Shown piece after piece: positions 55,201 to 59,100 of a stretch of DNA of 64,000 nucleotides (positions within the stretch are counted from its first letter, which is position 1; the number at the start of each line of letters is the position of its first letter). The position numbers and the translations under genes are program-made. The notes under the pieces were generated by a model. The model worked only from the letters and a program-made list of their open reading frames with translations, had not been told where the DNA came from and did no database searches. The DNA comes from Humulus lupulus (taxonomy: Eukaryota > Streptophyta > Magnoliopsida > Rosales > Cannabaceae): assembly GCF_963169125.1 (NCBI RefSeq), contig NC_084800.1:142286397-142350396 (forward strand). The letters run 5' to 3'.

Positions 55201-56057
55201 TCCTCATTAGACAAGGACACTTGAGAAGGTACGTACGGGCCTCGGGAACTTCCCAACGAGAAGCTCCAGGTGGCAACGAGCAGACGTCCACACGCCAACG
55301 CTCGCCACCATTACAGCCTGCCCCCGTAGCCGGAACACTTTTAACCATCTGTGGAGGCCCGCACCTCGCAGGAAACAGCGGAAAGGCTAGAGAACGATAT
55401 GCTCGAACTCTACGCCACGACCAGGACATCGAGATGATGACTGTGGAGGACCGAGCACCGAAAAAGGCCCGCTCAGAGGAATGCGGGATAACCTTCTCTG
55501 AGGGTGATGCCCAACACGTCTGGTTCCCACATTCCGATCCGCTGGTCGTGGACATCCAAATGGCCAATATGATGGTAAAAAAAGTACTGGTCGATACAGG
55601 AAGTTCAGTGAACATCCTGTATAAATCAACGCTGGAACGCATGAAGCTGTCCGTGAAGGACTTGGATCCCTGCAATCAAACCATATACGGCTTCTCTGGA
55701 GAAGGACTCGCACCAGCCGGAATGATCAAACTCCCAGTGACAACGGGTACAGCGCCTGCCTCAAGGACATTACTCGCCACTTTTGTAATGGTCGATTGTC
55801 CTTCAGCGTATAACGCAGTTATTGGGCGACCCATACTGGTTGAACTGAGGGCCATCATCTCCATGTGGCATCTAGCCATGAAATTCCCAACGGACACAGG
55901 GGTAGGATGCGTTTTGGGAAACCAAAGGGAAGCCAGGGAGTGCTATAACGCCTCAATCACAAAGGCAAAAAGTGGAGCATCGAGGAGCGCTACCCCAGAA
56001 CGATTGCAGATGACGGAAAGCAGACAAACCCAATCGGGTGGAAAAGTCACCAAATAG
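55201..56057 (+). CDS. Element C protease (end of gag-pro frame)
   Basis: The frame open from about 55200 to the UAG at 56055-56057 holds a basic linker and then a retropepsin-like protease. KKVLVDTGSSVNILYK carries the active-site DTG at 55593-55601, and ATFVMVDCPSAYNAVIGRPIL supplies the later hydrophobic flap and the GRP motif. Its role in this family is to cut the polyprotein. There is no ATG immediately at its start: it would be made as part of gag-pro, which is frameshifted at about 55135. The end at VTK-UAG is shared with B. Confidence 0.87.
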
Positions 56058-56102
56058 GGTGTTTCCCAAAGTGAGGATATAGATTTGGATCCTTGCTTTG
56101 GG
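56055..56102 (+). promoter_or_regulatory. Candidate UAG readthrough signal, element C
   Basis: The stop TAG at 56055-56057 is followed by GGTGTTT. Then the arm 56065-56078 pairs with 56089-56102: CCCAAAG with CUUUGGG, U-G, and GAGGAU with AUCCUU. This gives 14 bp (two wobbles) and a 10-nt loop. Pol continues in the same frame after the stop. A and B share stop, spacing and stem. UAG followed by a nearby structure is how murine leukaemia virus makes Gag-Pol, but no experiment is implied here. Confidence 0.6.
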
Positions 56103-59100
56103 GATTTTGAAGAAAATGTTGGACCCGTCGAGGACCTGGAGGAGGTCCAGCTCGATGAAAAAGACCCGACCCGAATCGTAAGGGTTGGGAAGAATTTAGA
56201 ACCTACCGCAAAGCAGGCGCTGGTGGAATTCTTGCAAGAGAACCAGGAAGTTTTCGCCTGGTCACATAAATACATGTTCGGAATAGATCCTGCAGTGATC
56301 AGCCATGTCCTGAACATAAACAAAGTCTTTCCACCGGTGCAACAGAAAAGAAGGCTGCTCGATAAAGACAGATCAAGAGCCTTGAAAGAAGAAGTCGAAA
56401 GACTTAAAGAGAATGGGTTCATCAGGGTGGCATTTTATCCATCATGGGTCTCCAATCCGGTGCTGGTCCCCAAGCCTAACGGCAAATGGCGGACCTGTGT
56501 GGATTTTACAAACCTCAATAAAGCCTGCCCAAAAGACTGCTTCCCACTCCCGAGGATCGACCAGCTAGTCGATGCAACTGCTGGGCATGAGATCCTTTCG
56601 TTCATGGATGCGTATTCAAGCTACAATCAGATCAGCATGCATCCACCTGATGAGGATCATACCAGCTTTCGGACCGATACGGGCTTATATTGTTACAAGG
56701 TAATGCCTTTTGGACTAAAAAACGCAGGTGCGACTTACCAACGACTAGTCAACCACATGTTCAAGGAGCTGATCGGAGTAAGCATGGAGGTATATAGGGA
56801 TGACATGCTGGTAAAGTCCAAGAAGGCTGAAGGACATGTGAGGGATTTGCGAAGATGCTTTGATGTGTTAAACAAGTACCATATGAAGTTGAATCCCCTC
56901 AAATGTTCCTTTGGAGTCGGGTCAGGAAAGTTTTTAGGGTTTATAGTGAACTCAAGGGGCATCGAGGCCAACCCCGACAAGATAAAAGCCCTGATCAATA
57001 TGAAGTCGCCACAAAAGATCAAGGATGTCCAAAGTCTGACCGGAAGGATAGCTTCCCTTAGTAGATTCATCTCAAAATCAACTGACAAGTGCGTTCCATT
57101 CTTCAATCTACTTAGGGGAAATAAGAAGTTTGAATGGACGGAAGACTGCGAGCAAGCATTCCAGACAATAAAGGCTCATATGTCGCAACCTCCCATCCTA
57201 TCAAAACCAATCGAAGGAGAAACTTTGTATATTTATCTGGCGATTACCGAAGTTGCTGCTAGTGCGGTACTGATACGGGAAGAAGAAGGCGTGCAGAAAG
57301 CTGTTTACTACGTCAGCAAAAGGCTTATCGGTGCAGAATTAAAATATCCACCGATCGAAAGATTAGCATATTGCCTAATTCTAGCCTCCCGAAAGTTGCG
57401 ACCGTACTTCCAAGCCCATCCTATCATGGTTCTGACCGACCAGCCCCTTCGGCAGGTCCTCCAAAAACCTGAAGCGGCTGGACGACTGTTAAAATGGGCG
57501 GTCGAATTGGGACAGTTCGACGTAACTTATTCACCGCGAGCAGCAATAAAAGGGCAAGCCTTAGCCGATTTTATTGCGGAGTTCACCGAACTCCCCAGCA
57601 ACGAGTTGTGCGAACAGCCTGAGGCGCCCATGCCTCAAGACAAGACTCCTTCGTGGAAGCTATTCACAGATGGATCATCTAATGAATCTCACGCTGGAGC
57701 GGGAGTGATATTGATAACGCCCGACGGGCATCGATTTCACTGCGCAATCAGGTTTGACTTCGCAGCGTCAAACAATGAAGCGGAATATGAAGCACTCCTC
57801 GTTGGACTGAGAATGGCCAGGGAAATGAATATAAAAGCGCTCGATATTTACAGCGACTCCCAGCTGGTCGTGAATCAAGTCCTGGGAGAATATCAAGCGC
57901 GAGGGTTAAAAATGATGGCCTACCTTAACAAAACAAAAGATTTGCTAGCGCAGTTTACAAAATACACCCTCCAGCAGATTCCGCGAGACCAAAATTCGAA
58001 TGCAGACGCCTTGGCCAAACTTGCAAGTGCTAAAGATGCTGACACCTTGAACATAGTCCCAGTAGAGAGATTAAGTGAACCAAGCATTGATGCGGCCGAA
58101 GCCAGCATGGAAATTCGAATAGAAGATACATGGATGGCGCCTTACCTGGAGTATCTGACAAATGGGACATTGCCAGCAGATAGAAACAAGGCCAGAACTC
58201 TGCAAAGACAAGCTGCTAGGTACATACTGCTCGACGGTGTTATGTACCGAAGAGGATACTCAATGCCACTGCTCAGGTGTATCACGTCAGAAAAAGCTAA
58301 GGAACTCATGAAAGAAGTGCATGAAGGCTTCTGCGGAGATCACGCCGGGGGGCAGAGATTGGCGAAAAAAATTCTCCGACAGGGCTATTTTTGGCCAACG
58401 ATGAACGAGGATTCAATGGAGTGCGTACGAATGTGTGACAAATGTCAGAGGTTCTCCAAAATCCCACGAGCAGCTCCAAACGAGCTAAAGCAGATGCAGA
58501 GCCCGTGGCCTTTCGCAATATGGGGGATAGATTTAATTGGATCACTGCCAACAGGAAAAGGAGGAGTAAAGTACGCAGTTGTGGCAGTCGATTACTTCAC
58601 AAAATGGGTCGAAGCTGAACCACTCGCAACCATCACAACCAAGAAAGTTCTCGACTTTGTCATCAAGAACATTGTGTGCCGGTATGGTTTGCCCAGAAAA
58701 ATAGTATCAGACAACGGTACCCAATTTGACAGCGACCTATTCACCGATTTCTGCGAAAGGCATGGGATAATTAAGAGCTTTTCTTCAGTCGCACACCCCC
58801 AAGTGAATGGGCAAGTCGAAGCTGTAAACAAAACCCTCAAGGACACCCTGAAGAAAAGACTTGAAGAAGCGAAGGGAGCATGGCCAGAACAACTACCTGA
58901 AGTCCTCTAGTCGTATAGAACATCTCATCGAACAGCCACAGGACGTACCCCATTTTCCTTAGCTTATGGGTATGAGGCCATGTTACCCGTCGAGATAAAT
59001 CCCCCCTCACATCGGCGTTTAACGTACGATCAAGAGCAAAACAGCCAGCTAATGCTGGAGTCCTTAGACTCAATTGATGAGATACGAGAAAAATCTCAAC

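What the first reader, a model, noticed from the sequence alone, without database searches (positions are those of the whole stretch)
56040..56103. Conserved in-frame UAG plus covarying hairpin between protease and pol: candidate programmed readthrough in a Tat retrotransposon
Seen: A (15396-15398), B (31444-31446) and C (56055-56057) all have ACC AAA TAG GGT at the protease/pol junction, with pol in the same frame after the stop. In each, 7 nt later, a 13-14 bp stem follows (outer CCCAAAG/CUUUGGG in all). Differences keep pairing: the central pair is U-G in A and C and C-G in B; the next pair is G-C in A and B and G-U in C. In B the protease frame is open exactly to this stop. Known: murine leukaemia virus uses UAG-G plus a downstream structure 8 nt away to make Gag-Pol. 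Inferred: the stop is functional and sets the gag-pro to pol ratio.
Basis: partly seen in the sequence, partly recalled or inferred. Interest (0 to 1): 0.92.

Follow-up and report, generated by a model that had tools for sequence, protein, structure and literature searches.

The report
Leaky stop signal in plant retrotransposon
A very numerous plant jumping-gene family keeps a stop codon followed by an RNA hairpin exactly between its two main protein-coding parts, most likely a ribosome "leak" that makes a little of the second part, a trick proven in some viruses but, as far as I could find, not yet in a plant retrotransposon.

Summary
Copies A, B and C have ACC AAA TAG GGT, 7 nt, then a 13-16 bp hairpin at the protease/pol junction. 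C is a Retand-type Tat element.

In the window's own 2.48 Gb genome I read the junction codon of 142 copies: TAG 129, TAA 7, sense 6. Of 150 best protease matches none has an open frame above 1000 aa; 38 lie at 985-990. Of 150 best pol matches 36 have 1102 aa, none above 1143. A sister family has a sense codon there (20 of 20), no hairpin, and frames up to 2115 aa. A-C codons after the stop are constrained though synonymous sites are near saturation.

The claimed covariation fails: the C-G pair is private to copy B, the G-U variants sit at a CpG, and over 122 copies pairing does not beat shuffling (68 of 1000).

Best explanation: programmed readthrough of a UAG-G-plus-hairpin signal, fusing Gag-Pro to Pol. 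No readthrough was measured. A rice relative, RIRE2, was already cited as a candidate (PMC2754532).

The parts
56055..56057 (+). UAG stop of element C, context ACC AAA UAG GGU
   Evidence: 39 of 39 other C-family copies read have TAG
56058..56064 (+). 7-nt spacer (Gly codon GGT follows the stop)
56065..56077 (+). 5' arm of hairpin, 13-bp core (the full stem 56063-56078 pairs with 56089-56104 in this copy)
56090..56102 (+). 3' arm of hairpin, 13-bp core; holds the CpG position that reads TG in this copy
55071..56057 (+). frame of 328 aa with the protease-like part, ends at the UAG; not recognised by Pfam, identified by relatives
56058..58910 (+). pol frame of 950 aa starting directly after the UAG: RT, RNase H, second RNase H, integrase
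54295..55185 (+). gag (Retrotrans_gag) frame; shifted against the protease frame in this copy
   Evidence: 38 of 150 other matches have one 985-990 aa frame around the protease
61711..62835 (-). antisense ORF with Transposase_28 domain between pol and 3' LTR: Retand hallmark
   Evidence: PMC11963269 passages
52484..52927 (+). 5' LTR part of element C, 99.55% identical to 63557-64000 (3' LTR cut by the window end)
15396..15398 (-). UAG stop of element A; hairpin arms 15388-15376 and 15363-15351
   Evidence: 20 of 20 other A-family copies read have TAG
31444..31446 (-). UAG stop of element B; hairpin arms 31436-31424 and 31411-31399
   Evidence: 53 of 59 other B-family copies read have a stop

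Best explanation
The UAG is the functional end of a Gag-Pro polyprotein and a programmed readthrough site. A few per cent of ribosomes insert an amino acid at UAG (G at +4), helped by the 13-bp hairpin 7 nt downstream that meets the ribosome while the stop is in the A site, and go on to make Gag-Pro-Pol. This keeps Gag-Pro in excess over RT/integrase. Shown: sequence, frames, hairpin stability, retention of a stop in four subfamilies, coding constraint on both sides in the best comparisons, absence of stop and hairpin in the single-frame sister family. Inferred: that ribosomes read through, the rate, and that the hairpin stimulates it.
For: Junction codon a stop in 136 of 142 copies read: A 20 of 20, B 53 of 59, C 39 of 39, neighbour copy D 1 of 1, protease-query set 20 of 20, window 3 of 3. 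With a query ending before the stop, 34 of 38 copies read have a stop. Protease frames: 0 of 150 above 1000 aa, 38 at 985-990. Pol frames: 36 of 150 exactly 1102 aa (4 of them counted across a stop inside the matched piece), none above 1143; 989+1+1102 = 2092, close to the sister family's 2115-aa single frame. Sister family: codon GAG in 20 of 20 copies read; 77 of 150 frames above 1000 aa, 8 of them across a stop; no stem over 8 bp at the homologous place in 3 of 3. A versus C after the stop: dS 1.59, dN/dS 0.07 over 217 codons; B versus C before it: dS 1.78, dN/dS 0.12 over 317 codons. Codons 1-72 after the stop, A versus C: pN .156, pS .649. C is young (LTRs 99.55%). UAG GGG is the type III plant-virus context (PMC2754532 passages); murine leukaemia virus has an 8-nt spacer (PMC4178896 passages).
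Against: No translation data. No overall covariation (68 of 1000 shuffles reach the observed pairing). One subfamily has UAA (D, L142, L143), usually a less leaky stop (recalled). No conserved pseudoknot. Many old copies have stem mismatches; within the B family the 3' arm decays nearly as much as the loop (10.3% against 14.6%; 5' arm 4.0%). Identity at the junction is not exceptional in sliding windows. Weaker comparisons: A-B after the stop dN/dS 1.19 (223 codons; partly read out of frame, since both carry the same stops there), B-C after it 0.25 (40 codons), A-B and A-C before it about 0.6. Conservation data come from one genome. Of the six closest database proteins (organism unknown) three end in K near this place, three end elsewhere.
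Confidence: 0.77

Rival explanations
1. Ogre-like partial splicing: a small intron spanning the stop is removed from some transcripts, joining Gag-Pro to Pol.
For: Ogre, the other angiosperm Tat branch, does this at the same border (PMC6317226 passages).
Against: Ogre frames are separated by on average 274 bp; here the frames abut at one codon. Residues just after the stop (QSEDxDLDPR) align with coding residues (LSEDIDPR) of the single-frame sister family, so splicing would delete coding sequence shared with it. No consensus donor plus pyrimidine-rich acceptor near the junction in A, B, C (B scanned 297 nt downstream only).
Confidence: 0.07
2. Pol is started independently, by reinitiation or internal entry promoted by the hairpin.
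For: Gao et al. 2003 (abstract recalled, paper not held) proposed internal entry or bypass for plant Ty3/gypsy elements with a stem-loop at the end of gag.
Against: In-frame AUGs after the stop are not at a shared early place: codon 73 first in C, 24 in A, 10 in B, with out-of-frame AUGs before codon 73 in C. Codons 1-72 are under amino-acid constraint (A-C). Pol stays in the zero frame at once after the stop.
Confidence: 0.07
3. The stop is a founder defect: these are non-autonomous elements whose Pol comes from the single-frame sister family.
For: Non-autonomous Retand clusters exist (PMC11963269 passages); the two families share one genome.
Against: Pol after the stop is constrained between A and C (dN/dS 0.07), 1102-aa pol frames are common (36 of 150), and a hairpin at readthrough spacing would be unexplained.
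Confidence: 0.06
4. Recurrent deamination of a CAG codon in methylated dead copies made the same TAG many times.
For: TE decay is visible elsewhere in the frames.
Against: CAG is seen in 0 of 142 copies; the six sense variants are all different; in 28 C-family copies, window copy included, other stops are 4 scattered cells against 28 of 28 here.
Confidence: 0.01

Closest known systems
Type III stop-codon readthrough signals (UAG GGG GGC of carnation mottle virus; PMC2754532 passages)
   Same: UAG followed by GG; a downstream RNA structure (that type III sites use one is recalled)
   Different: Third codon base and host system differ; here in an LTR retrotransposon; readthrough unmeasured
Murine leukaemia virus gag-pol readthrough (PMC4178896 passages)
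   Same: UAG between in-frame reading frames of a reverse-transcribing element; spacer 7 versus 8 nt; structure downstream
   Different: Viral signal is a pseudoknot and protease lies after the stop; here a plain hairpin and protease lies before it
RIRE2 of rice (Retand by the table of PMC6317226; cited for candidate readthrough in PMC2754532)
   Same: Retand lineage, candidate readthrough
   Different: Sequence and signal of RIRE2 were not available here, so homology of the signal is untested
Plant Ty3/gypsy group with conserved stem-loop at the end of gag (Gao et al. 2003, recalled)
   Same: Stem-loop near the end of the first frame
   Different: As recalled, pol in +1 or separate frame and stem-loop at the gag end; here pol is in frame and the stem is after the stop
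Ogre (Tat) intron between gag-pro and pol (PMC6317226 passages)
   Same: Same lineage group, same gene border, same purpose
   Different: Splicing of a spacer, not a single stop codon

Membership tests
Retand branch of Tat (Ty3/gypsy) | RT-RH-aRH-INT order with second RNase H between RH and INT | tested here: met
   element C: RVT_1 137-297, RT_RNaseH 360-487, RVT_3 537-656, H2C2 744-799, rve 818-914
Retand branch of Tat (Ty3/gypsy) | Antisense ORF with Transposase_28 (PF04195) between pol and 3' LTR | tested here: met
   C 61711-62835 (-) 27.7 bits, above Pfam cut-off 26.2; A 8936-9619 (+) 24.8 bits, below it
Type III-like programmed readthrough | UAG with G at +4 | tested here: met
   A, B, C; most copies; one subfamily has UAA GGC
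Type III-like programmed readthrough | Stable structure starting about 8 nt after the stop (recalled; 8 nt for murine leukaemia virus) | tested here: met
   7-nt spacer, 13-16 bp, z about -4.4
Type III-like programmed readthrough | Downstream frame open and under coding constraint in the same frame | tested here: met
   pol frame 1102 aa in 36 of 150; A-C constraint after the stop; A-B comparison does not show it
Type III-like programmed readthrough | Structure supported by covariation | tested here: inconclusive
   68 of 1000 shuffles reach observed pairing over 122 rows; one T-G to A-T double change in 2 copies
Type III-like programmed readthrough | Measured readthrough above background | not testable with these tools
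   needs a translation assay
Gammaretroviral readthrough signal | Pseudoknot | tested here: not met
   no loop/downstream pairing kept across A, B, C, L142, L147 (simple complementarity scan)
Ogre-type intron element | Intron-like spacer separating gag-pro and pol | tested here: not met
   frames abut at one codon; no splice-like pair

The most novel reading that the evidence does not exclude
A hairpin-stimulated UAG readthrough signal is the standing Gag-Pro/Pol switch of a major Retand branch, and related families gain or lose it: in one genome one family uses a single frame of up to 2115 aa, the other about 989 aa + UAG + 1102 aa. This would explain much of the two-ORF class of Retand elements across flowering plants (26 of 63 clusters, by subtraction from PMC11963269) and be a first proven readthrough in a plant retrotransposon.
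Probability: 0.35. Interest if true: 0.8.

Novelty: new variant of a known kind. Interest (0 to 1): 0.62.

Why it matters
How plant LTR elements make more Gag than Pol is mostly open. A 2025 review names two main strategies, frameshifting and two transcripts (PMC12786077 passages). A 2009 paper says all verified plant readthrough cases were viral (PMC2754532 passages); since then readthrough of some Arabidopsis mRNAs has been reported (PMC9293766, start of abstract in the listing). Here a family with thousands of first-look candidates in one genome (2049, 3053 and 1616), with a stop-free sister family as natural control, gives a short signal that can be tested directly in a reporter. The stop lies after the protease, so protease is made without readthrough, unlike the gammaretroviral plan.

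Tried and rejected
Covariation as support: rejected; the C-G pair of copy B and the G-U pair of copy C are copy-level or, as I infer, CpG-decay variants. Conserved pseudoknot: a UUGGAU/GUCCAR pairing is possible in C and L142 but not found in A, not supported. Ogre-like intron: no sites. A TAG one codon from the homologous place in sister copy G looked like a counter-example; 20 of 20 other copies read there have GAG, so it is private. Rfam: one chance match below its cut-off, on the other strand, away from the hairpin. Relatives in viral and prokaryote contig collections: none. Protein search with the first 42 residues of pol alone: nothing. Papers: Gao 2003, Firth 2011 and Steinbauerova 2008 are not held; I used recall or other papers' passages. 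Nine paper searches listed no report of this signal in a Retand element; I saw listings, and only the held open-licence library was searched. The genome search scores best matches only (40 or 150 of thousands of candidates), so counts lean to well-preserved copies, and queries holding the stop lean to copies like them. The 20 junctions were chosen by me out of 150 (10 divergent, 10 with long frames); 20 of 39 non-window A-family hits, 39 of 39 B-family hits, 20 of 21 extra upstream-query hits and 20 of 39 sister-family hits were fetched. The tool counts some frames across a stop inside the matched piece (5 of 150 rows).

Full report
What is there. The window lies in a 2.48 Gb assembly, G000; its elements' nearest named relatives are plant proteins, the species was not identified. 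It holds three elements of about 75% mutual identity. Each has ACC AAA TAG GGT, a 7-nt spacer and a 13-16 bp hairpin. In C the 328-aa protease-side frame ends at the TAG and a 950-aa frame with RT, RNase H, a second RNase H and integrase begins right after it. The antisense Transposase_28 ORF downstream and the domain order place C in Retand, by the criteria in PMC6317226 (passages) and PMC11963269 (passages).

Is the stop kept? I read the junction codon in 142 copies, the three window copies included. C family: 39 of 39 others TAG. A family: 20 of 20 TAG. B family: 59 copies, TAG 49, TAA 4, sense 6 (GAG, AAG, TAC, TGT, TAT, TTG once each). In the B subset found with a query that ends before the stop (38 of 39 non-window hits read) it is TAG 32, TAA 2, sense 4. 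Neighbour copy D has TAA. A protease-query set has TAG 18 and TAA 2 of 20 (L141 is frame-shifted upstream). In 28 C-family copies (one is the window's) over about 380 codon positions the only other in-frame stops are four scattered cells.

Frame lengths give a test that does not depend on picking junctions. Around the 150 best-scored protease matches (of 68,880 first-look candidates, query P0123, a database protein of unknown organism) the tool's open frame never exceeds 1000 aa and 38 are 985-990 aa. Around the 150 best pol matches (of 117,018) 36 frames are exactly 1102 aa, 4 of them counted across a stop inside the match, and none exceeds 1143. Comparing the two lists by eye, at least three copies have both frames at these full lengths. 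So the family is gag-pro (about 989 aa), stop, pol (1102 aa). The frame shift between gag and protease in window copy C is therefore not a family trait.

Natural control. In 200 kb beside the window three copies of a sister Tat family (63-66% identical in the first part of pol) have no stem over 8 bp at the junction. Two (E, F) have sense codons there and one (G) has a TAG one codon away; G's is private, since 20 of 20 other copies read have GAG at that codon (two of the 20 have an in-frame stop elsewhere in the 80 nt). F has a single 2099-aa frame. Genome-wide 77 of 150 best matches of its protease have frames above 1000 aa, up to 2115, 8 of the 77 counted across a stop, against 0 of 150 in the stop family (Fisher p about 2e-29; copies are not independent, so take it as descriptive). 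Stop and hairpin go together. Many of 120 listed plant relatives also run through this border without a stop, although gene models can hide stops. Of the six closest proteins to the protease end (organisms unknown) three end in lysine at about this place (P0122 ...DNVTK, P0123 ...SSSK, P0125 ...SDGK) and three end otherwise.

Is pol after the stop translated? A and C differ at near-saturated synonymous sites, yet dN/dS is 0.07 over 217 codons after the stop; B and C give 0.12 over 317 codons before it. Other comparisons are weaker: A-B after the stop 1.19 over 223 codons, B-C after it 0.25 over only 40, A-B and A-C before it about 0.6; A and B are decayed and shifted in places, and in the A-B tail both carry the same stops, so the frame compared there is not the coding one. 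Codons 1-72 after the stop, which precede the first in-frame AUG of C, show pN .156 against pS .649 (A-C); A has an AUG at codon 24 and B at codon 10. This speaks for translation from upstream through the stop and against reinitiation.

Is the hairpin selected? Its existence at this place is unlikely by chance, and its arms are nearly the same in the subfamilies while the loop changes. Arm codons that code the same residue are identical in 5 of 5 cases for A-C (117 of 207 overall) and 4 of 5 for B-C (96 of 213 overall). But sliding-window identity at the junction is not exceptional (rank 162 of 4645 windows for A-C, 326 of 2719 for B-C), the old B copies have lost pairs, and there is no overall covariation: 96.5% of cells pair, and 68 of 1000 within-family shuffles do as well (122 rows). 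One T-G to A-T double change is seen in two copies (L102, L133).

Mechanism and place among known systems. UAG GGG is the type III readthrough context of carnation mottle virus (PMC2754532 passages), and the layout resembles murine leukaemia virus, whose spacer is 8 nt (PMC4178896 passages). Differences: no conserved pseudoknot, protease before the stop, and a UAA variant subfamily. PMC2754532 already speaks of candidate readthrough among gypsy-type rice retrotransposons, citing the RIRE2 paper, and the table of PMC6317226 files RIRE2 under Retand; so the idea is not new, while the hairpin, the genome-wide stop retention and the sister-family control are what this work adds. Gao et al. 2003 (recalled only) described a conserved stem-loop at the end of gag in a group of plant Ty3/gypsy elements; whether it is this one could not be checked.

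Noticed in passing
L142, L143 and neighbour copy D (in L045): A subfamily reads UAA GGC instead of UAG GGU at the junction while keeping the hairpin; L147 of the same type has UAG GGC. Stop-to-stop change hints at selection for a stop.
   Followed up: partly
window 58908-58910: In-frame TAG ends the pol frame of copy C at 950 aa, short of the common 1102 aa in the family; the window copy is defective.
   Followed up: partly
L041-L060 (200 kb beside the window): A sister Tat family with a single uninterrupted gag-pro-pol frame of up to 2115 aa; how it sets its Gag:Pol ratio is unknown.
   Followed up: partly
window 1-1124 and 35730-36346: Related repeats (about 730-nt spacing inside the first block) 35.7 kb apart, flanking elements A and B; perhaps LTRs of an older element into which they are nested.
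   Followed up: no
window 41774-42571: ORF with RVP_2 protease domain (E 2.3e-28): another retrotransposon, probably Ty3/gypsy.
   Followed up: no
window 48046-48359 and 52099-52398: Short tandem repeats of about 85-nt and 50-nt units.
   Followed up: no
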